A stretch of 64,000 bases of DNA, taken from the NCBI GenBank assembly GCA_030737835.1, contig CM060849.1, positions 2,356,001-2,420,000 of the forward strand. The letters run 5' to 3'. The DNA comes from Acorus gramineus (taxonomy: Eukaryota; Streptophyta; Magnoliopsida; Acorales; Acoraceae). Made by a program: the position numbers and the translations under genes. The notes below the pieces were generated by a model. That model worked only from the letters and a program-made list of their open reading frames with translations, made no database searches and was not told where the DNA came from. This document shows positions 31,520-62,009 of this stretch, piece after piece; positions within the stretch are counted from its first letter, which is position 1; each line of letters opens with the position of its first letter.

Positions 31520-31535
31520 AATTTTGAATTCCACT
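31520..31535. repeat. Left copy of the LINE target-site duplication
   Basis: AATTTTGAATTCCACT is identical to 61695-61710, on the far side of 30 kb of inserted DNA. Confidence 0.85.
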
Positions 31536-32345
31536 CTTTTTTTTGGGAATAAAGGTAGAAATTTGCTACCCGATTTCATTCTGATTTCGAATTACAAACT
31601 CTGAAAGTGGGGGAGAATAGAGAAACAACATAAAACAGGAGAGCAAGAGTCCTCCAAAAGGCCTTGGTTAGAAGAGTTATTTAACAAAAAGCTACCCATC
31701 CCGTGGTTATGCTCCTAACACCATTCTCCCATTCCTGAAATGTACCTCCTCCGCCTTCACTATCTGGCATCCCCAGTCCCGCATACACCCTTGAAACATT
31801 TCCCACATGTTCTCCTGGTATGGCCTCACGCCTCAAAATATCATGTCATTTCTAGTTCTTCGGATGGACCATGCGCTCGCCGGTACTACTATTTACGCTA
31901 TTAGAGTTTCCGCTGTATTATCCGCCACCCGTTGTAATGCCTTCCTTGCATTGCATAGTTTGTCCACTTTTTGGAAGGAAGTTGCCAGCCCGGTGTGTGT
32001 TCCTCACACTGCCCAAAACTGCTGCACTACCACACAACCACAAAACAGGTGTTGCGACATCTCCGATTCTGCCGCACACAGCGTGCATGTAGTTGAGTCA
32101 TTTGGTGCCCACCTCTCGCGATACGCCTTTGTGAGGAGACGTTCTTGGTATAGTAACAACATAAACAACTTGATTTTCGTCGGGATCTTTGATCACCATA
32201 TTTGTTTATGCTTGCTACTAATTTGTGGCCTCTCCTCCGATGATGTAGTCCACCATATGTAGGCGCTTTTCACCGAAAACTCCCTGGAACCCCTCGGTCT
32301 CCATCTGAACTGGTCCTCTCTTGTTGCCTGATTGCCCTGCATCCC
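31536..32345 (-). mobile_element. 3' part of a 5'-truncated L1-type LINE, split by R1
   Basis: Minus strand. Protein remnants are DQFRWRPRGSREFSVKSAYIWW, then KIPTKIKLF, then YQERLLTKAYRERWAPNDSTTCTLCAAESEMSQHLFCGC, the zf-RVT domain (Cys/Cys/His/Cys) that closes plant LINE ORF2. Next come PASAWSIRRTRNDMIF and a non-coding 3' end with a short A run next to the target duplication at 31536. Several stops and frame changes are present. The 5' part is at 61602-61694. Confidence 0.85.
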
Positions 32346-32576
32346 TGTAGATATCCCAATTTTAACCGTCCGAAGAAATGAAAATACTTCAAGTAATACT
32401 TAGAAATGACCACATTTGAAAAATTAATAAAGAAAACATCTCTTTAAAAGGACCAACTCTGGTCACAAACACTTAGGAAAAATAAAGAACCAGAGATGGG
32501 GCAGCTAGTTGAAAGTAGCCGCCCCATAATGGGCGGCTAGTTTCTATTAGCCGCCCCTTAAACCACCTCCGCTGCT
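32346..32576 (+). repeat. R1 5' LTR, first part
   Basis: Collinear with 60326-60555. It contains two GGCGGCTAG/CTAGCCGCC-type hairpins (about 32499-32565). It is interrupted at the CTGCT duplication (32572-32576) by solo LTR M1. Confidence 0.9.
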
Positions 32577-34680
32577 TGTCACGCCCCAGGGCGGCCGTCC
32601 CCGAGACGTGGCAATAATAAAATATCAGCTATCAATACCTGAGGTCAATAAAGACTCCAACAACAACACACAAGGTGGCAAAGCAAGGATAATGATAACT
32701 GACTGAAAAGCGGAAGCATAATATATAAACAATGTCTGTAAACCAAAAACATTATTACAGACTCGAATACACAATCACTGTCCTGTGAGAGCCAAGTCTA
32801 GACCAATGAAAATACAACCTGTGCCACATGCACGATTTACAATACATAAAATGACTGTAGGACTGTTGACAGCCTCGCACTCGCCACCCGCCGGAAGAAC
32901 GCTCCACGCCCATAAGACCACGCCTCAGGAAATCTCCAGCTCTACGCCCAACACTACCCCTGAAAAGAAACAGTATGCGAGGGGTGAGCTACAAGCTCAG
33001 TGAGTGGCTGGAAACCAATCACCATACAACAGTTCAATACTAAAGCAATTTCCTTTCAAGGAAAACATGGGTAGAAACCCAATGGATAACAAGGTCACGC
33101 GGTGGCGCGACCAACCTCACCCTCACCCTCACTCCCGGAGGGAGGCTCTTGGGACTTTTGGGGAGTGACCATACTGTTGGTCGAGGAGACCCGGGATTAC
33201 TAGTCTACGCAACACTACTAGATCATCTACATCGAGATAACTGCCCAACGATGTCTTTGAACATCGATACGAGACCGGACCCAACAACTATGGGAACGGA
33301 CGAACAACGAATGGGTCACGAGGTGACGTGTCTTCACCTCATCCTCACCCTCACTCCCGGAGGGAGACTCTTGGGACTTTTGGAAGAGACCTAGACTGCT
33401 CTACACCCTTGGTCCACCGGTAGCCCTTTCCCCGGGTAGTCACTACCTGGTATACTCCCACGATCAGTACGCTTCCGAACGCCTCGGTGGTACCTACGGA
33501 TGGGAGCCCTCTGTCAGGACAGCTTTTCCAATGCCGGAAAGTTCCTACATCGGATCCAACGAAGGGGAGAACGATTCCACACTCGCAATATCATTCGTTA
33601 GCCCTCTCCCGGGTAGCCTCTACCTGGTACACTCCCACGATCAGTACGCCCCCGAACGCATCGGTGGTACCTACGGATGGGAGCCCTCTGTCAGGACAGC
33701 TACAACTCGGGCCTCTTCAACACGGACGACATTGGGAGTAAACATTCCATGTTCGCAAAGTGAACCCATGGAAAGCAACTACTCTCGATAATCACATATC
33801 GAAGAGAGCGAACACTATTGTACTCCCACACGGTTGCGTCGCTCGGACACAAGGGGTTGCCTCTGCTCTCACGCAGAAATAATCCCAAGGCACATAACCC
33901 AACAGGCGGTTCATATACACGCCTAGCACGGGTAGGCCTAGCCTAATGCCCCACTACCGGCTTAACAAAACCGATAAGGTAATGAATTCTACAGAATTCC
34001 AAACGAGTGCATCGCTCGGATGCACGGGGCGATTACATCGCTAGTGCTCTAACTAATAAGGTACAACCCGACAGCGGGTCATACCCACGCCTATTTCAGA
34101 TAGGCCTAATTAGTTTTAACATGCGCATATATTTTATAGGAGAATTTAATCTTAGTTATGTGCATGAACCATATGCACGATAACATATCAATTAATCATA
34201 GGGATACTCCCTAATCATAGATTTACATCATAATAAATCATACAGCATGCATACATGGTCATTAGTCACATAAGCACACAAGGCCTAACTTAAGCATGCG
34301 TTGGATATCACCAACTTAAAAGAAAGGGTCAAGCGCGATCTCGCGCACTAACAGGTGCATGCCAATATTCTAAACGAACCTGAGTCGAGTAGGAAATCGC
34401 ATCTACTTACTCAGTTCGTTCAGAGGGAGAGGGCGAGAGAGATCATCATCTCATAAAGCTGGTCATAGTTTTGCCCCATTAGCATGGGCGCAACAACTAC
34501 ACCACGCCCTCGAGTCTTATCGCAAGGGAATATTAGGCAGGTGCCCGTTATTAACCTAGACTTAATCATGCTGGATATTTCAATTAATATGGTGGGAGTA
34601 GTATTACAATACTACCTAAGGCATGTCATATTCTATACATCCATACACATTACCAAAAATACATGCCCATACTAGAGGGG
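32577..34680 (-). mobile_element. Solo LTR M1, right-hand part of the LTR (minus orientation)
   Basis: Starts TGTCACGCCCCAGGGCGGCC, the reversed 3' end. It includes reversed GGGTGA repeats (about 33115, 33340) and several copies of a CTACGGATGGGAGCCCTCTG module (33490-33700). Further parts are 37732-37891 and 48075-49383; the CTGCT duplication at 32572-32576 and 49384-49388 proves one insertion. Total LTR about 3.6 kb. Confidence 0.88.
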
Positions 34681-37600
34681 TGTTATATATGTGTCACTTT
34701 TTGGCCTGCTGGTAACCATTGGAGCATTTTGGCAGTTTTTGAGTTTTTTTCGTTTTTCGATCGGAACCGCAAAATTTTGGACTGTTAGCTATCGTCCTGT
34801 GTTTGAGGACTCCGATTGAAAATCTAACTGCATATTATGTGTCCTGGTGCCATTTTAAGCCACTCACAAAAATTTCATCGAATTCCGGTACGTTTCAGAA
34901 TTTCATAGTTCTAGGGCGTATCCGGGTTTTGACCGATCGAGAAGTCATTGGGAGAGTTGACTCGGTCAAAGTGGGCCCATGACTTGGTCAACCCTTTTTT
35001 TTTTGTGTGGATGGGTTGACCTAAGTCAAATCCCACTTAAACCTAATTAATCAAGCCTTAACCCTAGTTAACCCTAATTAAGTTGAGTTGACTTATTTAA
35101 GTGAGTAGCAAAAGTTGCCCTACACTATTCATCATCTTCTCAAAATAGATTTCTCTCTCCCCCTCTCTCTTTTTCTTAGATTTGAGCCACCTAGGGTGCT
35201 TGAACCTTAAAACTCAAAGCATAGAAAGGTTAGATCCGGTCCCGATCTATCTACCGGTAGTTTCGGATTCGAGTTCCGACAAGTTTGGCCCCCTCTAACC
35301 CCCTCTATTCTCCCCTGTTTTCAGCCCCATTTGAGGTAGGAAGAGGTCTTGGTGGTGGAGATCCGTTGGGAGGCGTTTCGGTGCACGAAGATCCTCCGGA
35401 TCCCTTCCTTTCCTCTCCTTCATTTGGGTAAGCTTTCTTTCCCTCTTTTTCATGTTTAGATGCATGTTAGGAGGGTGTGGTTGAGTGTGGAGGGCGGCTG
35501 GTGGCTGTCGGTGGTGGTTGGGGGCGGCCGGAGGCCATTGGTGGCCGGTGGGTGGTGGTGGAGGTGCTCGGGCAGGGTGGGTAGCTGTTCCGGGCAGGTT
35601 GGCAGCACAGGCAGCAGCACGCGCAGCAGGCGGAGAAGCTGGCAGGGCGCGCGCTTGCGTGCGCGCGGGCGTGCGCTCGGGTGGAGCTGGAGGGCGTGCT
35701 GGGCGTGGGTGTGCTGGGCACTGGTCGTGGGCGATGGGGCGCTGCGTGCAGGGCACCGTGCGGGGGCGTGCGCGCAGAGCGCTGCGCAGAGGCGCAGGCG
35801 CGCTGTGCGTGCGCGGCGAGTCGGTGGAGTGCTGGGCAAGCCGGTGGTGCGCGCGGGGTGCGCGCGGAGCGAGGCGAGGGCAACGGAGGTGCGCGCGGGG
35901 CGAGGCGCTGGGCGCGCGGGGCGTGCGGTGTGCGTGCGGGCCAGCGTGGGGCGTGTGGTGTGCGCGCGTGGTGCACCCGGGGAGCTCGGCGGCGTGTCCT
36001 GGCGTGCGGGCAGGGGCTCGGCAGGGGCTCGGCAGGGCGCCTGGGTGCGCGGGCTGAGGCGCGACGGTGCATCTGGGGGCGGGTGGTCGTGCGGGTGGTT
36101 GCCGGGGGTGCGGGAGTGAGTCGGGGTGCTCGGGCTAACGTGCGTACGGGCCGTATGTACGTTTGCCCGAGTGTTGGGTATTTATTTGTGTATTTTTGAG
36201 TATTTTGTGGTGTTTGTGTATTTTACTCACCGTGTTGATTACCCTGTCTTGCAGATCTTGACGGACGGTCGCGCGACGACCCGGTTATCAGTGAGTGGGA
36301 CAACCCAACCCAGTTGGGAGGCGCTACATGCACTTGGGCGTGTACCGTCCTCCCCTGGGGCACATAGTTAATATTAACTTGATATATGTAATCCATGCAA
36401 GCATGATTAGTGTGTAGAATGCATGCCACCCTAGACTTGTATGTTAGGGACTTGCACCCTTAGGATATGTATAAGAGCCGTGCATTCTGTCACCTTGTTA
36501 TCATGCTAGGAAAGCCTCGACCTATGCATGCGTCCTATTAGTTTGATTTATTAAATTAAATGCAAACTTAAGATATTTTTAGCATGCCTTGGGGAATATT
36601 AAGGGGGCCTTGCGAGGTCAACATTGAGACCCGGGCTAGGGTACTCCGTGTTCCTTGTTTGGTTGGCGGGATGTCCTATATCGGGACCTCAGGTTGCCCT
36701 CCCAAGGTTTCTTTTCCTCATTATTATCTTATGTTTTCCCCGCATCTTGGTTATGCGCGCTGGTGGAATTCTGAAGAATTCAAGACATTAGAGTTGTAGA
36801 GATGTGTTGTCTGCGGATCCAAGTGGATCATATGCGATGGATAGGCTGTTCTGTTCCCTTCGTTGGATCCGTGTAGAGACTACCTCAGCGTTAGAAAGGT
36901 CATCCCGTGCAGGGGCTCCCATCAGTAGGCACCTCCTGATTTGGTAGACGGACTGTGCTGAATGTGGGAGTGGCCAAACGGCCTACGGAGTGGGGAGAGA
37001 CTATCGGTGGACCAAGGGTGACCAACAGCCTAGTCAGTCCCAAGAGCCTATGTCACCTATTGAGGGGTGAGGGTGAGGGTGTGGCGACCCACTGGATTGT
37101 GTGAGGATGATTATCAGCCTACTAAGTCCCAACATCCTTTGTCACCTATTGAGGGGTGAGGGTGAGGGTGAGGGTATGGTGGTTCGGCGATGTAACGAAC
37201 CCCTGGATTTGTGTTGTTTATGCCATTTTGAGGCTAGTGACTTGATTAAATGTGGTTAATATAAACTGTGATGCATGGGTTGTGCTATTCACTGAGCGTG
37301 TGGCTCACCCCTCGCATAATTATTTTCTCCAGTGATTACCGAGGCGGACTTGAAGGAGGAGCTTCCCGAGCGACTACACCAGTAGCGGAGTAGCACCACG
37401 TCCCTCGAGTTTTGAGGCCATCAGCATCCTTCTCTTTGTTGTATGTATATATTTCTGTGCTTGGGCACCCAGTTTGGATTATATGGATGTATGTGTATAT
37501 ATATTGGCTCTCACAGGACATATGATTATGTATCGAGTCTGTAAAGTGTTGTTGATTTACAGATTCAGTCTTTTGCTTCCGCTTTTCTGTGTATACATCA

Positions 37601-37731
37601 TGTCAGCCTTTTTGTTGTCTGTGTTGTCTTTTTAGCTGTTGTTTATGGTATATTATTGATCCCCTGTATTGACTGCTGATATCATGTATACCCTTGCCGC
37701 GTCCCGGGGACGGCCGCCCTGGGGCGTGACA
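34681..37731 (+). mobile_element. Solo LTR P1 inserted in M1 (plus orientation)
   Basis: 3,051 bp, TGTTATATATGTGTCAC to GGGGCGTGACA, with all modules: CpG-rich block (about 35430-36254), two GGGTGA repeats (37068, 37157), and the hairpin near 37540. The flanks (AGGGG and GGGCG) are not a clean target duplication. Confidence 0.88.
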
Positions 37732-37891
37732 GGGCGCATGCAACACAATCATTCATACATGAATACAATACATGTATATAAGCCTAGCATGCAAGATATC
37801 TACATATTATAACTTAAGCATGGCCATACTACTTATCTACACAAGTAGTATAGCTAGGGGGCCCCATCGATGCGCGACGCGCGACTACGCG
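37732..37891 (-). mobile_element. Solo LTR M1, middle part
   Basis: 160 bp continuing M1 after P1, ending with GACTACGCG at the M2 insertion point. ACGCG (37887-37891) is the M2 target duplication. Confidence 0.8.
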
Positions 37892-40822
37892 TGTCACGCC
37901 CCAGGGCGGCCGTCCCAAGACGTGGCAATAATAAATATCAGCTATCAATACTTGAGGTCAATAAGGACACCAACAACAATACACAAGGCAGCAAAGCAAG
38001 GTAAAGATAACTGACTGAAAAGCGGAAGCATAATATATAACAATGTCTGTAAATCAAAAACATTATTACAGACCCGAATACACAATCAATGTCCTGTGGA
38101 AGCCAAGTCTAGACCAAAGAAAATACAACCTGTGCCACATGCACGATTTACAAAGCATAAAAGACTCTAGGAATGCTGACAGCCTCGCACTCGCCACCCG
38201 CCGGAAGAACGCTCCACTCCCATAAGACCACGCCACAGGAAAGCTCCAGCTCCACGCCCAACACTGCCCCTGAAAAGAAACAGTATGCGAGGGGTGAGCT
38301 ACAAGCTCAGTGAGTGGCTGGAAACCAATCACCATCTACAGATCAATACATAAATCAGTTCCCTTTTTCAAGGAAAAACATGGGTAGAAACCCAATGATC
38401 ACTGGGTCACGCGGTGGCGCGACCAACCTCACCCCCACCCTCACTCCCGAAAGGAGTCTCTTGGGACTTATGGGGAGAGACCATACCGTCGGTCGAAGAG
38501 ACCCGGATTTACTGGTCTAGGGACCATGCCGTCGGTCAAAGAGACCCGGACTTACTGGTCTACTCAACACTACTGGATCATCTACATCTAGATAATTGCC
38601 CATCGATGTCCTTCAACATCCATCACAAGACCGGACCCAACATCTATGGGAACGGTCGAACAACGAATGGGTCACGATGGACGCGTCTTCGCCTCATCCA
38701 CACCCTCACTCCTGGAAGGAGACATCTTGGGACTTTGGGAGAGACTTAGACTGCTCTACACCCCTGGTCCACCGGTAGCCTCTCCCTGGCCTGTAAAGTC
38801 GGGGAGTTCCTACATCGGATCCAACGAAGGGGAGAGCGATTCCACGCTCACGACATCATTCGTTAACCCTCTTTCGGGTAGCCTCTACCTGGCCACACAC
38901 TCAGTGAATGGCACCAACTATGCATCACAAATCATATGAACCTCAAATCAATCATAGCCTCTAAGTGGCAATGACTACACAATCCAATGGGTCGCTATAT
39001 CGCCGACCCACCACACCCTCACCCTCACAGGGTAACATGGGCTTTTGGGACTGACTAGGCTGTTAATCACCCTTGGTCCACCGATAGTCTCTCCTCCACT
39101 CCGTAGGCCGCCTGGTCTACTCCCACAATTCAGCACAGTCCGAACCCAAATCAGGAGGTGCCTACTGATGGGAGCCCTCTGTCAGGAAGGCCTGTCTAAC
39201 GCTGGGGCAGTCTCTATACGGATCCAACGAAGGGAACAGAAACAGCCTACCCACACGGATACGATCCACTTGGATCCGCGGTATTCCTTAACTGAAAAAA
39301 AAGAAACCTTGGGAGGGCACCATGAGGTCCCGATATAGGATATCCCGACAACCAAACAAGGAACACGGAGTACCCTAGCCCGGGTCTCAACGCTGACTTC
39401 GCAAGGCCCCTTAATCTAGAGAAGGGAGACTCTACTAATGTCATGAATTCTTCAGAATTCCTCCAGGGCGCATAACTAAGATGCGGGGAAGCATATATTA
39501 TAACAACAAGGTTATAATATTCCCTAAGGCATGCTAATAGCAATATAATCATCCAATCCCATCTTGATTTAACAAATTAAACTAAATGGGAACATGCATA
39601 GGTTCAGGCTTTCAAAACAAGGGGCAAGGTGCCTAAACATGCATAGGCCGCTATTCATGTTATAAGGGTGCGTATCCCTAGCATACAAAGTCTAAGGTGG
39701 CATGCATAGCATCATATTGATCATATAAGGGTGCATGCATAGCTTCTACATATAATAGCTAGGGGACCCCATCGATGCGCGACGCGCGTCTACGCGGGTC
39801 GAGCGCATCCCTAGAGAGAGGGGGGGGGGGATTGGAATCAAACCACTCACCTTACGACCCGGGACCTCGCGCATCCCATCCGACGAGATCTGCAAGGTAG
39901 GGGCATCCAACTGGTGAGAAACAACACAATTTATACATAGAAATGATTAGAAATACCCAAAACTCGGATAAGCATGCATACGGGCTCGCACGCATGCGAG
40001 CACGCGCGTACGCACGCGAGTCTGAGTTCCCCGACACCTACCCGAACCCCCGGGCAGCCACACGCATGGCACCCCGCACGCGCACACACGAATGCGCACG
40101 CACGCACATACCCCGGCACCATCGGCGCACTACCGCGCGCCTGCCTGCACCCCCAGACGCGCTGCCGCACGCACGCGCACGCTCGCGCGCACTGCGCCCC
40201 CCGCACAGCTCCCCGCGCACGCCCCAGCACGTGCACGCATGCGCACGCACGCACGCGCGCGCACTGGTCCCCACCTCCGCGCCTAGGCGCCCTGCCCCGC
40301 GCCCAGGCGCCCTGCCCACGCGCGTGCACGCACTCCCACGCGCACCCCCGCTCGCGCCTGCACCCGCGCGTGACTGCGCGCCCGACTGCGCCCGCCTGCG
40401 CGCGCACGCGCGCAGACCGCGCCCAGCGCGCGCCCAAGCCATCCTAACCCCTTTTTCACCCATCCCAACCCCTCACACACACCCTAACCCAACTACCTAG
40501 CATGCATGACCTCCCAACCAACCCCTTAAGCCAAGAAAACCAAGAAAGAAGGGGAGGAGCTCACCTTGGAAGGGGAACGAAAGGGGGAGGTTCGGGGGCC
40601 CTTCGCGCACCGAAACGCCGCCACCGGGACCACCACCACCACCACCACCTCTCCTCGGCCTCCTCAGCCCTCCATGGCAGCAAAACAGGGGGGGGGGGGG
40701 AACATGCAAAGGGAGCTTGAGAGAGAGGGGAAACAACAACATCAACAACACTCCCACACAATCCACTTGCACTTGCACCTCCACCTTCACCCTCTCTTTG
40801 GGGACTTTTAGCAAACACCAAG
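37892..40822 (-). mobile_element. Solo LTR M2, main part (minus orientation), inserted in M1
   Basis: Starts TGTCACGCCCCAGGGCGG. Two different LTR module sets are joined near 38890, so the LTR looks mosaic. The CpG-rich block is at about 39960-40440, followed by the reversed leader with a (CCA)n stretch at 40630. It continues at 47506-48074. Target duplication ACGCG at 37887-37891 and 48075-48079. Confidence 0.87.
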
Positions 40823-41691
40823 TGTCACGCCCCAGGGTGGCCGTCCCCGGGACGCGGCAAGTGTATATAAAATATCAGAATCTACACAGGAGGTCAATAA
40901 TATATCATACACAAACAACCAGAATGACACACAGACAACAAAGGGGCTGACATGATATATACACCAAATGCGGAAGCAAAAGACTGAATCTGTAAATAAA
41001 CATTCTACAGACTCGATACTCAATCATCTGTCCTGTGAGAGCCAATATACACCAATACGACTGAACACATACAGACGCGTGCCAAGCACGATAACACAAT
41101 ACAAACAGTCAAGAAGGGATGCTGATAACCTCTGGCACTCGCGGAACGTAGCGCTGCTCCGCTACTGAAGGAATCCCTCGGAAAGCTCCAACTGCTGCTC
41201 CGGCTCCAGCTCAGGCTCAGTGACCACTGGGGAAAAACATATGCGAGGGGTGAGCCACACGCTCAGTGAACAGCACAACCCATGCATCACAGACAATATT
41301 TACCGCAATTCCATTATTTATCCATCCTCTAAGTGACATAACGACATAATCCAGCGGTTCGTACCTCGCCGAACCACCACACCCTCACCCTCACCCATCA
41401 ATGGGTGACATAGGCTATTGGGACTCATAATCATCCATTCACAAATCCAGTAGGTCGCTCATCGCCAACCCACTACACCCTTACCCTCACCCTACCACGG
41501 GTGACATAGGATTTTGGGACTGACTAGGCTGTTGGTCACCCTTGGTCCACCGATAGTCTCTCCTCCACTCCGTAGGCCGCTGGGCTATCACCCCCACAAC
41601 TTCAGCACAGTCCGTCACAAATATCGGGAGGCGCCTAGTGATGGGAGCCCTTAGAAGGGACGGCCTTTCTAACGCTAGGGTAGCCTCTACC
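40823..41691 (-). mobile_element. Solo LTR M3, first part (minus orientation), inserted in M2
   Basis: TGTCACGCCCCAGGG start. Target duplication CCAAG at 40818-40822 and 47506-47510. Interrupted by M4; continues at 44892-47505. Confidence 0.88.
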
Positions 41692-44600
41692 TATCACGCC
41701 CCAGGGCGGCCGTCCCCGGGACGCGGCAAGTGTATATAAAATATCAGAATCTACACAGGAGGTCAATAATATATCATACGCAAACAACTAGAATGACACA
41801 CATGCAACAAAAGGGCTGACATGATATATACACCAAATGCGGAAGCAAAAGACTGAATCTGTGAATAAACATTCTATAGACTCGATACTCAATCATCTGT
41901 CCTGTGAGAGCCAATATACACAAATACAACTGAACATATACAAACACGTGCCAAGCACGGAAATCAAATACATACAGTCAAGAAGGGATGCTGATAACCT
42001 CTGGCACTCGCGGAACGTGGCGCTGCTCCGCTACTGAAGGAATCCCTCGGAAAGCTCCAACTCCTGCTCCGGCTCTAGCTCAGGCTCAGTGACCACTGGG
42101 GAAAAACATATGTGAGGGGTGAGCCACACGCTCAGTGAACAGCACAACCCATGCATCATAGACAATATTTACCACAAATCCATTATTTATCCAGCCTCTA
42201 AGACATAACAACATAATCCAGTGGTTCGTACTTCGCCGAACCACCACACCCTCACCCTCACCCATCCATGGGTGACATAGGCTATTGGGACTGATAATCA
42301 TCCATTCACAAATCCAGTAGGTCGCTCATCGCCAACCCACTACACCCTCACCCTCACCCTCGCCCTACCACGGGTGACATAGGATCTTGGGACTGACTAG
42401 GCTGTTGGTCACCCTTGGTCCACCGATAGTCTCTCCTCCACTCCATAGGCCGCTTGGTTTTCACCCACAACTTCGGCCCAGTCCGTAACCAAATCAGGAG
42501 GCGCTACTGATGGGAACCCTTGGAAGGGACGACCTTTCTAACGCTGGGGTAGTCTCTACCGGATCCAACGAGGGGGATAGAACAGCCTATCCATACGCAT
42601 ATGATCCACTCGGATCCGCCGACAACACATCTCTACAACTCAAATGTCATGAACTCTTCAGAGTTCCTCCAAGGCGCATAACCACGATGCGGGGAAATAA
42701 GTACAATAAAAGCAAGGTTGTAATATCATTGGGGGAAAGAACTCGGGAGGGCGGCGTGAGTTCCCGTTATAGGATACCCCGACAACCAAACAAGGAACAC
42801 GGAGTACCCTAACCCGGGTCTCACCGCTGTCCTCGCAAGGCCCCTCCCCTATAATATTCACTAACATGCTAATAATCATTCCAATCATGCAACATTACTT
42901 ATAATATTATTGGGACTAGAAACCTTGGGAGGGCAGCATGAGGTCCCGATACAGGACATCCCGACAATCAAACAAGGAACACGGAGTACCCTAACACGGG
43001 TCTCAATGTTGACCTCGCAAGGCTCCTCCCTATAATATTATCTAAGGCATGCGATTTAACATACACTAGCATTTAATTTAATAAATAAACTAGTAGGACG
43101 CATGCATAGGCCGAGGTTTCCTATCATGAAAACAGGGGGGCATGGTGCATGGCTCTTACACCTATCCTAAGGGTGCAAGTCCCTAACATAAAAGCCTAGG
43201 GTAGCATGCATTCTGTATTTAAAATCATGCTCACATGCAATACATATTACTACAGGTTAATATAATCCACGGTGCCCCAGGAGAGGTCGGTATACGCCAA
43301 AATGCGTATGTCCCCTCTCTACTGGGTTGGATTGTCCCACTCACCAGAACTCGGGTCGACGCGCGACCGTCCGTCGAGATCTGCAAGACAGGGTATTACT
43401 TGGTAAGTATAAATCCACAATTATTATTAAATACACAAATAAATACCCCAAAACCCCAAATCAAACACCCAACACCCCCGGCAACCACCCGCACGGCCAC
43501 CCGACCGCCCGGGTGCAACGCCGCGCTTCAGCCCGCGCACCCCGCACGCACCCCGCGCGCACCTCCGCCACCTCGCCGCGCCTCGCGCGCACCTCTGCCG
43601 CCTCGCCGCGCCTCGCGCGCACCACCGCCGCCTCGCGCGCACCATGGCCGCCTCACCGCGCCCCGCGCACACCACACTGCCTCGCCGTGCCATCTCGCGC
43701 GCACTGCCCTCGGCCACCACCTCGCGCATGCACCACCACTGCCTCAACCAGCACCTCGCGCACGCACCACCCCTGCCCGCACGCCTAGCACCCGCGCGAC
43801 CAGCTCCTCCCGCCCAGACCAGCGCGACCAGCACCTCGCGCGTAGCTCGCCATCAGCTCCTCGCGCACAGCTCCCCGCGCTTGCACGCCTAACTGGCCTC
43901 CAGCTCTTCCCCGAGCGCATGCCCGCGCGCACGCTCGCGCCCGCCCCCAGCACGCACTCCGCGCGCATCGACCACTCACCCATCTCCCCGCACCAGCCGC
44001 TCGACCAGACCCGCGCACAGCTGCCCGACCAGCTCCTCGCACCAGACCCGCGCATACCCGCGCGCACGCCGCGAGTACGCACGCTCGCACACGCACGCGC
44101 GCATGCCCGCGCGCGCCCAGCCTGCGCGCTGCCTGGGCCGCTGCCGCTGCTGCCTGCTGCCCGGAACAGAGCCTGCCAGCCCGAGCTCCTCCACCACCAC
44201 CCAAAGGCCTCCGACGGCCTCCGACCGCCGCCTACCACCACCCAACCCCAAATCCATCCCCCTAGCATACATCTATGCAAGGAAAGAGAAGAAAAAGACC
44301 TTACCAAGGGGAGGAAGCGAAGTCCGGTTGCTCTCCGCGCACCGAAACCTTTCTCAAAGGCTCTCCTACGCCCCGATCTATCACGGCCCTCGAAACGGCC
44401 CGAAACAGAGGAGAGAGAGGGGAGGTCGGAGAGGCTAGGATCGCCGGAATCGGGATTTGAAACCACCGGGGTGTAGATCGGGACCCGATCTACACTTCCT
44501 AGGTTTTGGGTTTTAAGCTTTGAGGGCTCTAGGGGGCTCAAAAGTGAGAAAAATGGAGAAGAGGAGAGAGGGGAAGGGTTGGTAGGGATGATGAATAGTA

Positions 44601-44891
44601 ACTCGAAAATTAGATCCCACATATATATAGTGTGCGACTTAAAAACCCAGATACGCCCCGGAACTGTGAAATTTTGAAAACGTTGCCGGAATTCGATGAA
44701 ATTTTCGTGAGAGGCCTAAAATGGCACCAGGACACCAAATATGCAGTTAGATTTCCAATCGGAGTCCTCTAACTCAGGACGATAGCTAACAGTCCAAAAA
44801 TTAGCGGTTCCGATCGAAAACCGAAAAATTAGAAAAACTGCCAGAACGCTCTAATGGTTACCAACAGGTTAAAAGTGACACATATATAACA
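41692..44891 (-). mobile_element. LTR M4 inside M3 (minus orientation)
   Basis: About 3,200 bp. It reads TATCACGCCCCAGGG at one end and GACACATATATAACA at the other. All modules are present, including a CpG-rich block at 43490-44170. The first 300 bases closely match the start of M3, so the two are near relatives. The flanks (CTACC and CCAAC) do not match, and a few bases of M3 seem lost at the junction. Confidence 0.85.
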
Positions 44892-51240: not shown

Positions 51241-51738
51241 TTTGATCATCCTAAGAAGATTATATTGGTCTATATATAAAAAAAAAAATTATTTGATTAG
51301 TTTGGTTACCCTAGAGCCGAAATCTACTAATTTCGTATTAAAGGGGAAGCGACCCATATTTTTTTTTATATATATACGTTTTATTTTCCTTGCCATAAAT
51401 TTAGCTGCTATTCATATTTATTTATTTAAAAGAAATACTTCAAATCAGATTTATATAAATTGTAATTATATTTTATGTTTTCAAAGTCAAATTTAAGTAA
51501 ATCATATCATTGTATTCAAATCTCAATAATTCAAAAATAAAGATTTTCTTAATTAAACTCTCTACATATTTATTACGTTAATTTTATTAAAATGTAACTC
51601 TATATATATTTTACATGGCTTACAAATTTATTATGCTATATATTATATGGAATGAGCTTTAAATTCTTTTAATACATTATTTATACTTGTTTATCATGAA
51701 GGCTTTATTTTTATATATACAATATGTAATATGCTAAA
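51241..51738. other. AT-rich internal DNA of R1
   Basis: Very AT-rich with runs of T and TATATA, no coding signal. It ends with CTAAA before LTR P2. Confidence 0.5.
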
Positions 51739-54117
51739 TGTTATATATGTGTCACTTTTAGCCTTCTCGTCACCTTTGGGACATTTCTGGCAGTTTTTCA
51801 ACTTTTCCTTCTTTCGATCGGAACTGCAAAAAATTTTAGACTTTTAGCTATCATCATGAGCTTGAGAACTCCGATTGAAAATCTAACTGCACATTATGTC
51901 TCCTGGTACCATTTCAAACCACCGATTGAAAATTCCGGTAACATTTCAGAATTTGGCAGTTTCGAATCGTATCCGGGTTTTGACCGAGTGGGAATGTCAA
52001 AGGGGGACTTGACCAAGTCAAAGAAGACTTTGACCAAGTCAAGTTTGACCATTGACTTGGTCAAATGGTTTTGTTTTTTTGTGTGGTTGGGTTGACTCAA
52101 AGTCAAGCACAAAAATTGTTCCAAGTGTGTGAGTGTGTGTGTGTGTGCCCTAAAGTGGGTGTCCCCTTCCCTTCCCTTCTCTTCTCTTCTCTTCATCTCT
52201 CTCTCTCACACACAAATCTACCATCTCCTCTTCCTTATTTTCCCCCGTTGGAGCTAGTAGGAGAAGAAGAAAAGAAAAGCCCTAGAAGGGAAAAAGAGAG
52301 GTAAGGTTGTGATCTACCTCTCCATGGTCTTTGTTTGGTTTTCCCCTTTCTTTACCTCCCTCTCATGGTTCCCCTCCCCCCCTGTTTCAGCCATTGTTAG
52401 GGCTGAGGGTGGTGGTGGTCTTGGTGGTGGCGATTTGGTGCGCGAAGGGCACCCGAGTTCCCTCCCTTTTTCTTCCTCTCCTTGGGTAAGTCCTTCTCCT
52501 CCCTATGCTTGTTTAGATGCTTGTTTAGGGTGTGTGATTGGGTATGCATGGTATGCATGGGTGTTAGGGGGGTGTGGGAGGGCTGAGGAGGGGGTGGAAG
52601 GGCTCGGGAGCGCGCGCGGAGTCATCCGCGCCCGTGCGCGGGCATCTGCGCGCGCAGACAGGCGCTGGCGCGCGCCCGCGCGTACGCGCACAAGCGCGGG
52701 CGTGCGCGCGGGGTGCTGTGCGGGCGCGCAGTGCGCGCGGGTACGCGCTGGCTGGGCGTGCAGTGCGCCAGGGGTTTCGGTGTATTTCTAGTAAATTTCT
52801 TATGTATTTGTGTAGTTTACTCACCATATTGAATGCCCATGTCTTGCAGATCTTGACGGACGGTCACGCAACGACCCGGGTTTTGGTGAGTGGGACAATC
52901 CAACCTAGTAGGGAGGCGTTCGATGCACGTAGGCGTGCATTGCCCTCCCCTGGGGCACCATAATTGTGTATTAACTGTGATAAATGTAAAACTATGCAAT
53001 GCATGATTAATATGATGTAACCATGCCACATTAGACTTTGTATGCTAGGGATATGCACCCTTATATCATGTATAGAGGCCTATGCATGCCTAGACACCAT
53101 GTCCCTTGATTGGAAAGCCCCGAACTATGTATGTTCTCATCTAGTTTAATCTAATTAAATCAAAATGAGAGCATATTGTTATAAGCATGCCTTAGAGAAT
53201 ATTATAACCTTGTTGTTATAATATATGTTTCCCCGCATCTTAGTTATGCGCCCTGGAGGAATTCTTGAGAATTCATGACATTATTAGTGTTACAAATCGT
53301 TGTCGACGGATCCAAGAGGATCGTATCCGTGTGAGTAGGTTGTCTTCTCCTTTTGGTTGGATCCGATGTAGGGACTCCCCGGCATTGGAAAGCTGACCTG
53401 ACAGAGGGCTCCCATCTGTAGGTACCTCCGATGCGTCGGACAGTGCTGATCGTGGGAGTATACCAGGTAGAGGCTACGGAGTGTGGGAGAGGCTACCGGA
53501 TGGACGAGGGGTGGAGAGCGGTCTAGTATACCCCAAGAGGCCCATGTCACCCCCCCGTAAAGGGTGAGGGTGAGGGGGGGGGGTGGGTTGGCGATGAAAC
53601 GACCCACTAGAATGTGTAGTTGCTCCCGTTTTAGGGACTATAAATTATTTAAGGTTAATATGAATTGTGATGCATAGATTGTGCCATTCACTTCACCCCT
53701 CGCATATTCTTTTCCTCCAGTTATATCTGAGTCGGATCTGAAGGAAAAGCTCCCCGAGGCACCACAGCAGTAGCGGAGCAGCGTCACGTTTTGGGTTCTG
53801 CGAGTGAGAGGCCATCAGCATCCCCTTCTTGATTGTATGTATTGTTATCCGTGCTTGGGCACACACTTGTATTTGAATGTCATTGTGTATATTGGCTCTC
53901 ACAGGACAGTTGATTATGTATTCGGGTCTGTAATATGTCTTTGAATTACAGACTCAGTCGTTTAAGCTTCCGCTATTTGTATATATTATGTCAGCTACAT
54001 TATTGTCTGTGTTGTCATTTTCGATGTTGTTTAGAGTATTTTATTGATCTCCTGTATAGACTGCTGATATTATATATATTTGCCACGTATCGAGGACGGC
54101 CGCCCTGGGGCGTGACA
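51739..54117 (+). mobile_element. LTR P2 (plus orientation)
   Basis: 2,379 bp, TGTTATATATGTGTCAC to GGGGCGTGACA, with leader, a short CpG-rich block (52600-52770), GGGTGA repeats near 53565 and the hairpin near 53925. Left flank CTAAA and right flank CGTCG do not match. Confidence 0.87.
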
Positions 54118-56018
54118 CGTCGCGCATCGATGGGGCCCCCTAGCTATAATATGTAGATACCATGTCAATGCATGTTTGCTATGATATAACCATGTCTTGT
54201 TAGACATTGTATGCTAGGGATATACATCCATCTATCATGTATAGAGGCCCATACATGCCTAGACACCATGTCCCATGCTTAAAAGGCGTTGATCTATGCA
54301 TGTTTCCCATTTAGTTTAATTTAATTAAATCAAAATGAGATTACATTGGTATAAGCATGCCTTAGAGAATATTATAACTTTGTTGTTATAATATATGTTT
54401 CCCCGCATCTTAGTTATGCGCCCTGGAGGAATTCTCGAGAATTCATGACATTAGTAGTGTTAGAAAGCGTTGTCGACGGATCCAAGAGGATCGTATCCGT
54501 GTGAGTAGGCTGTTTTCTCTCCCCTTCGTTGGAGCCGAGTAGGGACTCCCCGGCGTTGGAAAGCTGTACTGACAGAGGGCTCCCATCAGTAGGTACCTCC
54601 GAATGCGTTCGGAGGGTGCTGATCGTGGGAGTATACCAGGTAGAGGCTACGCGAGGGAGAGGCTACCGGTGGACCAAGGGTGGAGAGCAGCCTAGTCTGT
54701 CCCAAAAGGCCCATGTCACCCATAAAGGGTGAGGGTGAGGGTGGGGTGGGTCGGCGATGTTACGACCCACTAGCTTGTACAGTTACTCCCGTTTAGGGAC
54801 TTTAATTATTTTAAGGTTAATATGAGTTGTGTTGCATAGATTGTGGTTATGCCTGTGTTTTGATATCTCGATAAGTGATTATCAAGAGTAGTTTTTTTTC
54901 ATTGGGTTCGTGTTGCGAACATGAGATCGTTCTCCCCTTCGTTGGATCCGATGTAGGGATTTCTCAGGATTACAGCTGTCCTGACAGAGGGCTCTCATCT
55001 GTAGGTACTACCGATGCATTCGGGAACGTACTGACCATGGGAGTATACCAGGTAGAGGCTACCCGGGGAAAGGGCTACCGGTGGACCAGGGGTGTAGAGC
55101 GGTGAGTTGAAGAGGCCGGGTTGTAGCTGTCGTGACAGAGGGTTCCCATCCGTAAGTACAACCGATGCATTCGGAAGCCTACTGATCGTGGGAGTATACC
55201 AGATAGAGGCTACCCGGGAGAGGGTTAACGAATGATATTGGTGAGGGTGAGGATGAGGCGAAGACACATCGCCGCGTGACCCATTCGTTGTTCGACCGTT
55301 CCCATAGTTGTTGGGTCCGGTCTCGTAATCGATGTTCAAGGACATCGTTGGGCAGTTATCTAGATGTAGATGATCCAGTAGTGTTGTGTAGACCAGTAAT
55401 TCCGGGTCTCTTCGACCGACGGTATGGTCTCTCCCCAAAAGTCCCAAGAGTCTCCCTCCGGGAGTGAGGGTGAGGGTGAGGTTGGTCACACTGCCGCGTG
55501 ACCCTGTTATCCATGGGTTTCCACCCATGTTTTCCTTGTGAGGAAATTGTTTGAGTATTGAACTGTTGTATGGTGATTGGTTTCCAGCCACTCACTGAGC
55601 TTGTAGCTCACCCCTCGCATACTGTTTCTTTTCAGGGGCAGTGTTGGGCGTGGAGCTGGAGCTTTCCTGTGGCGTGGTCTTATGGGCGTGGAGCGTTCTT
55701 CCAGCGGGTTGCGAGTGCGAGGCTGTCAGCAGTCCTAGAGTCATTGTATATATTGTAATTCGTGCATGTGGCACAGGTTGTATTTTTCTTTGGTCTAGAC
55801 TTGGCTCTCATAGGACAGTGATTGTGTATTCGAGTCTGTAATAATGTTTTTGATTTACAGACATTGTTTATATATTATGCTTCCGCTTTTCAGTCAGTTA
55901 TCATTATCTTGCTTTGCCACCTTGTGTATTGTTGTTGGAGTCTTTATTGACCTCAGGTATTGATAGCTGATATTTTATTATTGCCACGTCTCGGGGACGG
56001 CCGCCCTGGGGCGTGACA
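54118..56018 (+). mobile_element. LTR P3, 3' part only
   Basis: It begins in mid-LTR at CGTCGCGCATCGATGGGG, the same internal site where M2 entered M1, and runs to GGGGCGTGACA. It contains three partly repeated modules with CTGACAGAGGG and two GGGTGA repeats (54730, 55463). The 5' half is missing. Confidence 0.85.
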
Positions 56019-56256
56019 TTTCCCCCTCTCCCTCTGGTCAGCCAAGTAGAAGAGAAGCAAAGATGGAGGTGGTGGTAGTGGTGGTGGCGATCGAGGTGGT
56101 CAAGGCGCTTGCGAGCCCCTACATCTCCCCCTTCCCTTCCCCCTCTATTTTTGGTAAGTTTTTCCTCTTCTTTAAATTGTTTTTATGCATGTTTGGGTGT
56201 TTGGGAAGGCATGCATGCTTGGTAGTTGAGTTTGGGTGTGTGAGGAGGGTTGGGGA
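56019..56256 (+). mobile_element. LTR P4, leader fragment
   Basis: It matches the leader of M1/M2-type LTRs (GGTGGTGG stretch, the GGTAAG border, then GGTTGGGGA). The extreme 5' end is absent. P4 continues after M5 at 57562. Confidence 0.75.
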
Positions 56257-57561
56257 TGTCACGCCCCAGGGCGGCGTCCCCGGGACGCGGCAAGGGTATA
56301 CATGATATCAGCAGTCAATACAGGAGATCAATAGCATACCATAAACAACAGCTAAAAAGACAACACAGACAACAAAGAGGCTGACATGATGTATACACAG
56401 ATAGCGGAAGCTAAAAAGACTGAATCTGTAAATCAACAACACATTACAGACTCGATGCATAATCATATGTCCTGTGAGAGCCAATATATACACAAACATC
56501 CAAATACAATCCGAACTAGGTGCCCAAGCACAGAAATATATACATACAATCAAAAGGATGCTGATGGCCTCTAAAACTCGAGGGACGTGGCGCTACTGCG
56601 CAACTGGTGCAGTCTCTCGGGGAGCTCCTCCTTCAAGTCCGCCTCGGTAATCACTGGAGAAAAATATTATGCGAGGGGTGAGCCACATGCTCAGTAAATA
56701 GCACAACCCATGCATCACAATTTATATTAACCAGTAAAAACCTCAAAGTGGCATTAACAACACAAATCCAGTGGTTCGTTACATCGCCAAACCACCAAAC
56801 CCTCACCCTCACCCCTCAATAGGTGACAAAGGATATTGGGACTTAATAGGCTGATAATCATCCTTACACAATCCTGTGGGTCGCCACATCGCCGGCCCAC
56901 CAAACCCTCACCCTCACCCCTCAATAGGTGACATAGGATATTGGGACTTACTAGGTTGTTGGTCACCCTTGGTCCACCGATAGTCTCTCCTCCACTCCGT
57001 AGGTCGTTTGGCCACCCCCACATTCAGCACAGTCCGTCCCAAATCAGGAGATGCCTACTGATAGGAGCCCCTGCACGGGACAGCCTTTCTAACGCCGGGG
57101 CAGTCTCTACACGGATCCAACGAAGGGAACAGAACAGCCTATCCATTTGCATATGATCCACTCGGATCCGCCGACAACACATCTCAACAATTCTAATGTC
57201 TTGCATTCTTCAGAATTCCTCCAAGGCGCATAACCAAGATGCGGGGAACATATAAAATAATAATGGGGAAAATAAACCTTGGGAGGGCAACCTGAGGTCC
57301 CGATATAGGACATCCCGCCAACCAAACAAGGAACACGGAGTACCCTAGCTAAAATAATGTGCAGTTAGATTTTCGTGAGTGGTTTGAAATGGCACCAGGA
57401 CACATAATGTGCAGTTAGATTTTCAATCGAAGTTCTCAAGCTCATGATGATAGCCAAAAGTCTAAAATTTTAGCGGTTTCGATTGAAAAAAGAAAAAGTT
57501 GAAAAACTGCCAGAAATGTCTCAAAGGTGTCCAGAAGGCTAAAAGTGGCACATATATAACA
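56257..57561 (-). mobile_element. LTR M5 (minus orientation), internally shortened, inserted in P4
   Basis: TGTCACGCCCCAGGG to GGCACATATATAACA. The whole CpG-rich centre is missing: the join near 57350 links the downstream module directly to the LTR start. No clean target duplication. Confidence 0.85.
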
Positions 57562-60259
57562 ATATGCGCGGGCGCACGGGTCCGCGCAGGTGCGGACGGG
57601 TGCTGGCAGGGCCCGCGGTGTGCGCGGGGCAGCGCGTCTGGGCGTGCGCCTGGGCTCGCGGCAGGGCACCAGTGGACGCAAGCGCATGCGTGCACGTGCG
57701 GGGGCCACGCGTGTGGCTGCCCGAGGGCTCAAGTAGGTGCTGGGGCACTCAGGAATGCGTGCATGCATGCGTGCGAGCCCGTATGCGTGCATATCTAAGT
57801 ATTTGGCATTTCTAGTTAAATTCTTAATGTTTTAATGTGATTTTACTCACCAAATTAGATACCTATGTCTTGCAGATCTTGGCGAACGATCATGCAACGA
57901 CCCGGGTTGCAGTGAGTGGTTCGATCCAACCCTTCAAGAAGCGTTGGATGCACGTAGTGGTGCGTCGTGCATCCGCTGGGCACCTTGATTGTACAACTTA
58001 TTTAGATAAGTACTATGGTCATGTCTAAACCATAATATGCTAGATATTTGCATGCTAGGTCAGTATAACTCGTATATTGCGTAGAACCCCCTATTATACT
58101 ATATACTTGCTTCTGTATTGTATTCAGGTATGAATGATCATGTTTGCATGTATCTTGTGTGTTTATAGGGGTGTATAGAATATGGCATGACTTAGGTAGT
58201 CCCTTCTAGTAATACTACCCTATTATTAGTAATATCCAGCATGATTAAACCTGGGTTAATAAACCGGCACATGCCTAATGTTCCCTTGCGATAAGACTTG
58301 AGGGTGTGGTGTAGTTGTTGCGCCCATGCTAATGGGGCAAAGCTATGACCAACTTCTAGAGATGATGAGCTCTCTCTCGCCCTCTCTCTTTGTGCGGACT
58401 GAGTAAGTAGATATGGTTCCTACTTGACTCAGGTTCGTTGGGAATATTGGCATGCCCCTGTTAGTGCGCGAGATCGCGCTTGACCCTTCCCTTTTAAGTT
58501 GGTGATATCCAACGCATGTTAGGGTATACCTTGTATGCTTGTATGCATATTATTTAGGCCATGCCTGGTTATGTATGTTGCATATATATTGTTTATGCTT
58601 TTTATCCATGTTAGGGAGTATCCCTATAATTAATTGTTATGTTATCGTGCATGTAGTTCATGTACATAACTATGATATAATTCTCCTGTAATATATATGC
58701 GCATGTTAAAACTGATTAGGCCTATCTGAAATAGGCGTGGGTATGACCCGCTGTCGGGTTGTACCTTATTAGTTAGAGCGCTAGCGATGTAATCGCCCCC
58801 CCCCCCCCCTGCATTCGAGCGATGCACTCGTTTGGAATTCAGGAGAATTCATTATCATATCGGTTTTGTTAAGCCGATGGTTATGGCATTAAGCTAGGCC
58901 TACCCATGTTAGGCGAGTGTATGAACCGCCTGTTGGGTTATGCCTTAGGGCTTATCTATGTGCGAGAGCAGAGGTGACTCCTTGCGTCTAAGCGACACAT
59001 CTCTATAGGAGTTCAGGCGTATTTTGATAGCATCGGCATGGGTTTACCGAGGATAGTTGTTTTTCCATAGGGTTTGCATTGCGAATGCGAAGTCTTCCTC
59101 CCAATATCGTCATGGACCGAAGCCCAGCATCGAAGCTGTCCTGTGTAGTGCCACCACTTGTAAGTGCTACCGATGCGTACTGTTGTACCCATCTGGTGAA
59201 TGTACCAATCGTGGAAGGCCGACAGGTAGAGGCTACGCAGAAGAGGGCTACCGGATGATATTGCAAGCGTGGAATCATTCTCCCCTTCATCAGATCCACG
59301 TTGAAGCTGCCGAACGTTGAAGCTATCCTGACAGAGGGCTCCCACTTGTAGGTACTACCGATGCGTTCGACAGATGTATTGATCATGGGAGTATACCAGG
59401 TAGAGACTACTCGGGATAGGGCTACTGGATGACGAAGGGTGTAGAGCGAAAAGATTCTCCCAATAGTCCCGTGTCACCCTTAGGGGTGAGGGTGAGGGTG
59501 AGTTGAAGTCACTTCGTCACGTGACTCTTATACCCATCGAGTATACTCTGGGTATGTTCCTCCCAACGCTTGAGGTATCGAAGTATATCTCTACCTCATA
59601 GCGGACGGACTCGTTGTAACTGTTATCCAGTAACACCAAGTGTTATGGTTAACAATTGTTCTTCCCTGAGTGTCCCAAAAGCGTCCCTCCGGGGAGTGGG
59701 GGCGAGGGCGAGGTTTGGTCGCGCCGTCGCGTGACCTTGTTATTCTTTGGGTTTCTACCCATGTTTTTCCTTGAAAGGAAATTGCCTTAGTATTGAATTG
59801 TTGTGATGGTGTTTGGTTTCCAGCCACTCACTGAGCTTGTAGCTCACCCCTCGCGTACTGTTTCTTTTACAGGGGCAGTGTTGGGTGTCGAGCTGGAGCT
59901 TCCCTGTGGCGGGGTTCGAGTGCGTGTAGTGTCCTGTCCGACGGTTGTTGAGTGCGAGGATGTCAGCAGTCCTAGTGTCATTCATGTATTTGAAATCGTG
60001 AGTGTTGCACTGGTTGTACTTTATTTGGATTAGACTTAGCTCTCACAGAACAGTGATTGTGTATTCAAGTCTGTAATAATGTTTTTTGGTTACATACTTA
60101 TTGATATTTTTATGCTTCCGCGTTTTAGTTGAACTATCAGTTATCATTGTTTTGCCAGCTTTGTGTGTTATGATTGGAGTCATTGTTGACCTCTTGTACT
60201 TGATAGCTGATACTTTATATATTGCCACGTCTCGGGGAGGGCCGCCCTGGGGCGTGACA
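57562..60259 (+). mobile_element. LTR P4, remainder
   Basis: CpG-rich block (57564-57780), CTTGCAG border near 57873, GGGTGA repeats near 59485, hairpin near 60070, end GGGGCGTGACA. It is closest in layout to M1. There is a C run at 58797-58809. Confidence 0.85.
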
Positions 60260-60325
60260 CTCTTTCTTTATCATCGATCGAAGTCTTTCTGTTTCACACA
60301 AAGACTCCATCCAATGAGGGATAAT
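60260..60325 (+). other. Last internal bases of R1 with a weak polypurine tract
   Basis: The stretch ends GAGGGATAAT directly before the R1 3' LTR; this is the only candidate polypurine tract. Confidence 0.5.
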
Positions 60326-61596
60326 TGTAGATACCTCAATTTTGACCGTCCAAAGAAAAAAAAATACTTCAAGTGATATTTAGAAATGACCACATTTGAA
60401 AAATTAATAAGAAAACATCTCTTTTAAAGGACAAACTCTGGTCACAAACACTTAGAAAAAATAAAGAACCACAGATGGGGCGGCTAGTTGCAAGTAGCTG
60501 CCCCATACTGGGTGGCTAGTTTCTACTAGCCGCCCCTTAAACCGCCCCCACCGCTTCCCTTGGATGGAACATAAAGCAGCATTTAATGCTGATGATTGCG
60601 ACGGTTTGTTCCTTTTAGCCGCCCCTTCTCTGACGTTTCAACCCTAATAACCACCTCAAGCCACCGCTTGTCAGAGATTGGACATTTGGTAGGTCATCAT
60701 TGGGGCGGCAACTTGAGAGTAGCCGCCCCTCACTAGGTGGCTAGTTATAACTAGCTGCCCCTCACCTGGACAATGTCAGAACAACAAAGATCTAATGGGA
60801 GGTCAAATCAACCACCCTATTATCCAATTTGATCTATTGTCCAGTGGACACTCCCTTGTCCGATTTTTACTATAAATAGGGGGTCCAAACACTTTTTCAA
60901 CATCATCCATTGATAATCCATGATAACCAATTCATCAATCACCCACTCAATCAAACCCCCTACACCCACTACTTTAAAACCCTTGAGAGAGAAAGAGAGA
61001 GAGAAACCCATTCTCTACACAAATTCCACCTCCTAGAAACCTCTCCAAAACCCTGGTTAAACTTAGTTTAACTTCAGCCAACACCCAAACCAAACCCTAC
61101 CCAGGCTCTGCCCAAATAGAGCCAGACACCAGGCGGCTAACCCTAACTAATCATCCCCCTCTAGGCGGTTAAATACAACTAGCCGACCCCCACTCTGTCT
61201 TTTAACCTCCCTTTGTCAAATTCCCAAAGCAGAAAAGGATTCCCTGTTTTTCACCTCTGTGTGCGATAGGCCTGTATCTCAGAGGAAGAATCCACAACCC
61301 CCCCCCCCCCCCCCCCAACGAAGGCGATCAATTGCAACACCCAACTTTTCCTACTTTTTTTGAGAAAGCAAGTGGCGATCACTACCACCCCTGAATCCCT
61401 CTAAGGAGCTGTCGAGCCCCTCAGCAAGGAACCACACCCCTTCCCCCCTTTCCAAGAGACGATCCAACCGGGCCCACAGGGTGCAATCGGATCCGAATCC
61501 CCGGAAAACCCCCCACACATGCAAAAAGACCATCTTTTTCGGAGGCCTCCCAACAACTGGAAGCAGACGCCCAACAACCGAAAAACAATACCGACA
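60326..61596 (+). repeat. R1 3' LTR
   Basis: 1,271 bp, TGTAGATACC to ATACCGACA, followed by target duplication ATCCC. It has one extra GGTGGCTAGTTATAACTAGCTGCC hairpin unit compared with the 5' LTR. A long C run lies at 61299-61316. Confidence 0.9.
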
Positions 61597-61601
61597 ATCC
61601 C

Positions 61602-61694
61602 CAGCCTCTCCAACAAAGTGGTGTATTGTCGAGATTCCTCCGTGCTAAGGTGTGCTCTCATAGCAATGTGCCATGAATCAGAGTCCGCAAGGTA
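61602..61694 (-). mobile_element. 5' part of the split LINE
   Basis: Minus-strand translation YLADSDSWHIAMRAHLSTEESRQYTTLLERLGIV fits the stretch that precedes FSVKSAY in plant LINE ORF2, and so joins in order to 32345-31536. It ends at the 16-bp duplication AATTTTGAATTCCACT (61695-61710), which marks the 5' truncation point. LINE length without R1 is about 0.9 kb. Confidence 0.8.
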
Positions 61695-61710
61695 GAATTT
61701 TGAATTCCAC

Positions 61711-62009
61711 TTTGAATCATGTCTGGATGCAAGCACCCGTTAATACTTTAACAAACGCATCATGCATACACGGATATGCTCGGTCCACACACACACAACA
61801 TATCTACCTATATATTAATGGGAAGTGTTTTCAATTGTATGTAACACAATTTTACATATTTACTCTTAATAAATTTGTTAAAGTATATTATTATTCAAAA
61901 CTAATATTTAGTCTACTAATCTTATCTTAGTATTTTAAATAGATAATAGATTTTTTAAGATATATTGAATGAATGGTATGATCATGCAACATCATCATAT
62001 TTATTTTTT
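61711..62009. other. AT-rich host DNA
   Basis: No gene seen. It was contiguous with 31519 before the LINE inserted. Confidence 0.6.

What the first reader, a model, noticed from the sequence alone, without database searches (positions are those of the whole stretch)
31520..61710. A 0.9-kb LINE holding about 29 kb of later insertions, six levels deep, each level dated by its ends
A perfect 16-bp duplication (31520-31535 and 61695-61710) marks one LINE insertion. R1 (duplication ATCCC) split the LINE; M1 (CTGCT) split the R1 5' LTR; M2 (ACGCG) split M1; M3 (CCAAG) split M2; M4 lies in M3. Five target duplications can still be read, giving a clear order of events and unusual proof that two LINE pieces 30 kb apart belong together.
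Basis: seen in the sequence. Interest (0 to 1): 0.75.

Follow-up and report, generated by a model that had tools for sequence, protein, structure and literature searches.

The report
Six-deep nest of plant jumping genes
A short LINE fragment in a plant genome was split by a retrotransposon that was itself invaded again and again by members of another family; the order of events can be read, but such nests are ordinary in plant genomes.

Summary
In four of four related LINE copies compared, the two pieces are adjacent (two of the four are probably one duplicated place). R1 (ATCCC), M1 (CTGCT), M2 (ACGCG) and M3 (CCAAG) have exact 5-bp duplications, and unsplit relatives support each split. M4 lies in M3 but has no duplication, and 4-5 target bases are missing.

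Corrections: M1-M4 are solo LTRs (3.2-3.6 kb) of a Ty3/gypsy family resembling rice RIRE3/RIRE8/Retrosat2, lying on the minus strand. The proposed LTR-divergence test therefore exists only for R1 (K2P 0.087, about 3.3 My). Nearest-relative bounds do not fall with depth.

An allelic empty site could not be tested: the adjoining flanks found only themselves, and no related genome is held. A well-resolved example of a known kind; interest is low.

The parts
31520..31535 (.). left copy of the 16-bp LINE target duplication AATTTTGAATTCCACT
   Evidence: sequence
61696..61711 (.). right copy of the 16-bp LINE target duplication
   Evidence: sequence
31536..32345 (-). LINE, 3' piece with A tail and zf-RVT (the last 5 bases are the R1 duplication ATCCC)
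61602..61695 (-). LINE, 5' (truncated) piece
32346..61596 (+). R1 LTR element with its insertions; duplication ATCCC at 32341-32345 and 61597-61601. 5' LTR 32346-32576 plus 49384-50350; 3' LTR 60326-61596
32577..49383 (-). M1 solo LTR with its insertions, in the R1 5' LTR; duplication CTGCT at 32572-32576 and 49384-49388
34681..37731 (+).
37892..48074 (-). M2 solo LTR with its insertions, in M1; duplication ACGCG at 37887-37891 and 48075-48079
40823..47505 (-). M3 solo LTR with M4 inside, in M2; duplication CCAAG at 40818-40822 and 47506-47510
41692..44891 (-). M4 solo LTR in M3; no duplication, 4-5 target bases missing
50382..51738 (+). K: fragment of another dispersed repeat in the R1 interior, cut at both ends (left edge approximate)
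51739..54117 (+). E3: M-family LTR with both ends, flanks do not match
54118..56018 (+). E2: M-family LTR, 3' part only, interrupted by E3
56019..60259 (+). E1: M-family LTR, 3' part only, interrupted by N; 5' part not found
56257..57561 (-). N: M-family LTR with a large internal deletion, inside E1; flanks do not match

Best explanation
A stack of ordinary transposon insertions in a plant genome. A 5'-truncated LINE inserted by target-primed reverse transcription and made the 16-bp duplication. LTR retrotransposon R1 integrated into the LINE. A member of a long-LTR Ty3/gypsy family integrated into the R1 5' LTR (M1); others integrated into M1 (M2, X), M2 (M3) and M3 (M4). M1-M4 and X are now solo LTRs, which most likely formed when the two LTRs of each recombined and the interior was lost. 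Shown: the order, the five exact duplications, unsplit relatives, and the lack of an interior or second LTR for M1-M4. Inferred: the enzymatic routes, the recombination step and the dates.
For: The two LINE pieces abut in 4 of 4 relatives with the expected spacing (first seen); zf-RVT in the window copy and RVT_1 upstream in relatives. Exact 5-bp duplications for R1, M1, M2, M3 against 21 of 20,000 random draws. Unsplit copies: R1 3' LTR for M1; 2 of 3 M1 relatives for M2, 3 of 3 for X, 2 of 3 M2 relatives for M3, 3 of 3 M3 relatives for M4. The same LTR family flanks a complete element in the window at 9177-22990.
Against: M4 has no duplication and its target lacks 4-5 bases; X's is decayed. 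L050 (M2 site) and L054 (M3 site) gave no right-hand match, and the M3 site differs by 5 and 1 bases in L055 and L056 beside a G run. Nearest-relative distances are larger for the inner M3 and M4 (K2P 0.062, 0.040) than for the outer M1 and M2 (0.029, 0.018). The R1 interior is rearranged and lacks duplications. No allelic empty site was seen.
Confidence: 0.94

Rival explanations
1. M4 did not enter M3 by integrase-mediated insertion but by recombination or break repair between related LTRs, so five insertions, not six, are dated by their ends.
For: No 5-bp duplication (3 of 5), terminal TA instead of TG; 4-5 target bases present in 3 of 3 M3 relatives are missing.
Against: M4 is complete to both LTR ends and M3 resumes at the matching place; a deletion of about 9 bp beside the right end would remove one copy of CTACC and explain the data (inference).
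Confidence: 0.35
2. The two LINE pieces are unrelated fragments that happen to flank the nest.
For: Relatives of the LINE 3' end are common: 40 matches among 40 scored of 322 candidates, nearly all of them in the first 65 bases of the LINE.
Against: Perfect 16-bp outer and 5-bp inner duplications and expected spacing in 4 of 4 relatives.
Confidence: 0.01
3. The nest is an assembly artefact in repeated DNA.
For: Repeat-rich region; the R1 interior nest has lost its duplications.
Against: Matching duplications up to 30 kb apart at several depths would not survive misjoining.
Confidence: 0.02

Closest known systems
Nested LTR retrotransposons of plants (surveys PMC6911290, PMC5379124; the maize work of SanMiguel et al. 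1996 seen only as a reference entry)
   Same: Elements inserted into earlier ones with 5-bp duplications; solo LTRs inside solo LTRs are listed as a standard type, with up to five layers counted in Arabidopsis and in 2 Mb of maize (passages).
   Different: One level more if the outer LINE is counted; M1 and the later M insertions lie in LTRs, which the survey found hit least often (section 7).
RIRE3 / RIRE8 / Retrosat2 long-LTR Ty3/gypsy elements of rice (PMC3485330)
   Same: LTRs of about 3 kb; LTR 3' end GGGCGTGACA (passages; own termini).
   Different: The LTR 5' end here is TGTTATATAT (or TGTTATGCCT, TGTTGTGCCT), not the TGTCACACCC printed for RIRE8 and Retrosat2; no reference sequence was compared.
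Spip and Squiq, non-autonomous partners of RIRE3 and RIRE8 (named in PMC1940013 passages)
   Same: 12 of 14 direct LTR pairs found lie 6.0-6.5 kb apart, leaving roughly 3 kb of interior.
   Different: The interiors were not read, so partnership is inference.
Plant LINE (non-LTR retrotransposon)
   Same: A tail, 5' truncation, 16-bp duplication, zf-RVT; relatives carry RVT_1 upstream.
   Different: Only about 904 bp remain; nothing unusual.

Membership tests
LINE (non-LTR retrotransposon) | 3' A tail and target duplication longer than 5 bp | tested here: met
LINE (non-LTR retrotransposon) | reverse transcriptase region | tested here: met
   window: zf-RVT only (48.6 bits, cut-off 27.5); RVT_1 in relative L017 (58.4 bits) and, below cut-off, in L014 (21.9 of 29.6)
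LTR retrotransposon (R1) | two direct LTRs, TG..CA, 5-bp duplication | tested here: met
LTR retrotransposon (R1) | own interior with gag-pol | tested here: not met
   about 30 bp and 66 bp of its own interior remain; no Pfam family at E 0.001 in the one interior frame scanned, 50535-50756; R1 is filed as an LTR element by its LTRs and duplication only
Solo LTR (M1, M2, M3) | single LTR with both ends and a 5-bp duplication, no interior | tested here: met
Solo LTR (M4) | 5-bp duplication | tested here: not met
   3 of 5 bases; filed as an LTR by sequence, mode of entry open
Ty3/gypsy, chromodomain type | RT before integrase, chromodomain | tested here: inconclusive
   in the window's related element: protease, RT, RNase H and Integrase_H2C2 above cut-off in gypsy order; rve (23.5 of 32.6 bits) and Chromo (18.3 of 25.1) below cut-off
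RIRE8 / Retrosat2 | 10-bp LTR ends TGTCACACCC...GGGCGTGACA | tested here: not met
   3' end met, 5' end not (against passage); not filed as RIRE8 or Retrosat2
RIRE3 | sequence identity to the RIRE3 reference | not testable with these tools
   no plant repeat library is held

The most novel reading that the evidence does not exclude
The M family integrates preferentially into LTRs of its own kind, so that a nest grows inward by repeated self-targeting: M2 and X into M1, M3 into M2, M4 into M3, and apparently E2, N and E3 into M-family LTRs in the R1 interior, against the published trend that LTRs are seldom hit. Survivorship explains this at least as well: recombination to a solo LTR removes every insertion that landed in the interior.
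Probability: 0.1. Interest if true: 0.4.

Novelty: new member of a known kind. Interest (0 to 1): 0.2.

Why it matters
A clean example of relative dating: one element with both LTRs (R1) brackets the ages of the LINE outside it and of the solo LTRs within it. It also shows that distance to the nearest relative need not fall with depth. It changes nothing general: PMC7251063 (abstract and passages) already reports that about a quarter of nested elements have higher LTR divergence than their hosts.

Tried and rejected
Allelic or paralogous empty site for the whole nest: 31300-31536 and 61696-61795 matched only themselves among the scored candidates, and the tool says that G000 has no relatives here. 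Untested.

Dating M1-M4 by LTR pairs: not possible, they are solo. Nearest-relative distances were used instead. In one search, 9 of the 12 M comparisons were aligned on the wrong strand and are discarded; one search repeats all 12 in both orientations and keeps the better. Only three relatives per M were compared; each search scored 40 of 5,411 to 8,813 candidates, and some rows with 98% identity over part of the query were not compared, so the M bounds are loose.

Species: a rubisco large-subunit search gave 5 matches.

Rfam on 30500-62500: 0 at gathering threshold. The promoter/terminator scan uses bacterial consensus sites and is not relevant. Two papers listed for 'seven layers' and 'six levels' used the words for other things (passages). 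PMC2672092 (passages) describes a tool for ordering nests and PMC11899658 (passages) tandem LTR elements in rice; neither changes the reading. I do not claim that such a nest is absent from print; searches made.

Full report
WHAT IS THERE. The window is G000:C3:2356001-2420000 of an unnamed plant genome of 398.6 Mb in 137 contigs. Beside the left copy, on the minus strand, lies the A-tailed 3' part of a LINE (31536-32345) with a zf-RVT match at E 1.3e-12; beside the right copy lies its 5' remainder (61602-61695).

THE LINE PIECES BELONG TOGETHER. Searched separately, the right piece matched 4 places including itself and 32100-32345 matched 27 including itself. At C9:7489319-7489661 the two pieces abut. 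In 4 of 4 relatives compared (L016, L014, L015, L017) the spacing is as expected: no gap in three, 10 bases where 10 are expected in the fourth. L014 and L015 are 98% identical over 3.2 kb and are probably one duplicated place. In L016 an open frame of 257 codons spans the junction and carries zf-RVT. Relatives share about 500 bp more on the 5' side, so the window copy is 5'-truncated.

R1. LTRs 32346-32576 plus 49384-50350, and 60326-61596, with ATCCC at both outer ends. Over 1,182 aligned sites K2P is 0.087 (one compared piece ran a base past the 5' LTR end), or about 3.3 My at 1.3e-8 per site per year (rate recalled). Little of the R1 interior is its own: of 7 other R1-type loci held in plus orientation, 3 match 23-26 bases of the 30 after the 5' LTR, and 2 match the 66 bases before the 3' LTR at about 92.5% (three minus-strand loci were not tested there). 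Between lie K (50382-51738, part of another dispersed family) and a second nest of M-family LTR sequence with three 3' ends (54117, 56018, 60259), one 5' start (51739), and N in the other orientation. Flanks of N and E3 match 0 and 1 of 5; no 5' start for E1 or E2 was found by the motif scan. Sequence has been lost there.

M1 TO M4 ARE SOLO LTRS. On the plus strand each begins TGTCACGCCCC (M4: TATCACGCCCC) and ends ...AACA. The complete element at 9177-22990 shows the true direction: direct repeats 9177-11974 and 20141-22990 (K2P 0.055), flanked by CAATT, enclose plus-strand protease, RT, RNase H and integrase-zinc regions, with integrase core and chromodomain matches below cut-off. So the LTR starts TGTTATATAT, ends GGGGCGTGACA, and M1-M4 lie on the minus strand. 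Without later insertions M1, M2, M3 and M4 measure about 3.57, 3.50, 3.48 and 3.20 kb (from the coordinates). Two-LTR places exist elsewhere: among 40 scored places in each there are 3, 5, 4 and 2 direct pairs 4-15 kb apart, 12 of these 14 spaced 6.0-6.5 kb. That leaves about 3 kb of interior, as in non-autonomous derivatives (inference).

EACH SPLIT AGAINST AN UNSPLIT COPY. M1 in R1: the R1 3' LTR is continuous where the 5' LTR is split, CTGCT facing CCGCT. M2 in M1: 2 of 3 M1 relatives read through with expected spacing; L050 gave no right-hand match. X in M1: 3 of 3 read through, overlapping by three bases in a G run. M3 in M2: 2 of 3 read through, with 5 and 1 extra bases beside a G run; L054 gave no right-hand match. 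M4 in M3: 3 of 3 read through, with 4-5 bases that the window lacks (all). Five-base flanks match 5 of 5 for R1, M1, M2 and M3, against 21 of 20,000 random draws; M4 and X match 3 of 5.

DATES. Only R1 has an LTR pair. For the solo LTRs the distance to the nearest of three relatives bounds the insertion age from above: M1 K2P 0.029, M2 0.018, M3 0.062, M4 0.040, about 1.1, 0.7, 2.4 and 1.55 My. By nesting M3 and M4 must be younger than M2, so their larger values reflect missing close relatives, the limited scoring of candidates, or conversion of M2. The bounds neither support nor break the order. If they hold, four insertions and their reduction to solo LTRs fell within about 1.1 My (inference).

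HOW IT WORKS. LINE retrotransposition with a long target duplication, integrase-made 5-bp duplications, and LTR-LTR recombination to solo LTRs are established routes (general knowledge; for rice solo LTRs, PMC1940013 passages). Nothing here needs a new mechanism. That the visible M insertions lie in LTRs, the region hit least often in a survey of 12 plant genomes (PMC6911290, section 7), is expected if interiors were lost afterwards.

COMPARISON. Published counts reach five LTR-element layers in Arabidopsis and in 2 Mb of maize and list solo-in-solo nests as a standard type (PMC5379124 passages). Here there is a LINE plus five LTR-element levels. The M family resembles RIRE3/RIRE8/Retrosat2 in LTR length and 3' end, but its 5' end is not the one printed for RIRE8 and Retrosat2 (PMC3485330 passages), so the family name is left open.

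Noticed in passing
9177-22990: Complete Ty3/gypsy element with TSD CAATT and LTR divergence K2P 0.055; it carries a solo LTR of its own kind at 13078-16339 with TSD AAGAA.
   Followed up: partly
6439-7911: Pieces of a Mutator-type transposase: DBD_Tnp_Mut and MULE Pfam matches.
   Followed up: no
50382-51738: Fragment K of another dispersed LTR-type repeat, with a primer-binding-like GATGATATCAGAGCC after GGGGCGTTACA near 50483, cut at both ends.
   Followed up: partly
L014 and L015 (C67, about 440 kb apart): Two LINE places 98% identical over 3.2 kb, probably a segmental duplication or an assembly duplicate.
   Followed up: no
61796-62030: A dispersed repeat, probably a MITE, starts about 85 bp right of the nest (40 scored places of 489 candidates).
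   Followed up: no
L026 (C8:10510737-10512058): An R1 relative with R1 interior sequence on both sides of one LTR, as in tandem LTR-element arrays.
   Followed up: no
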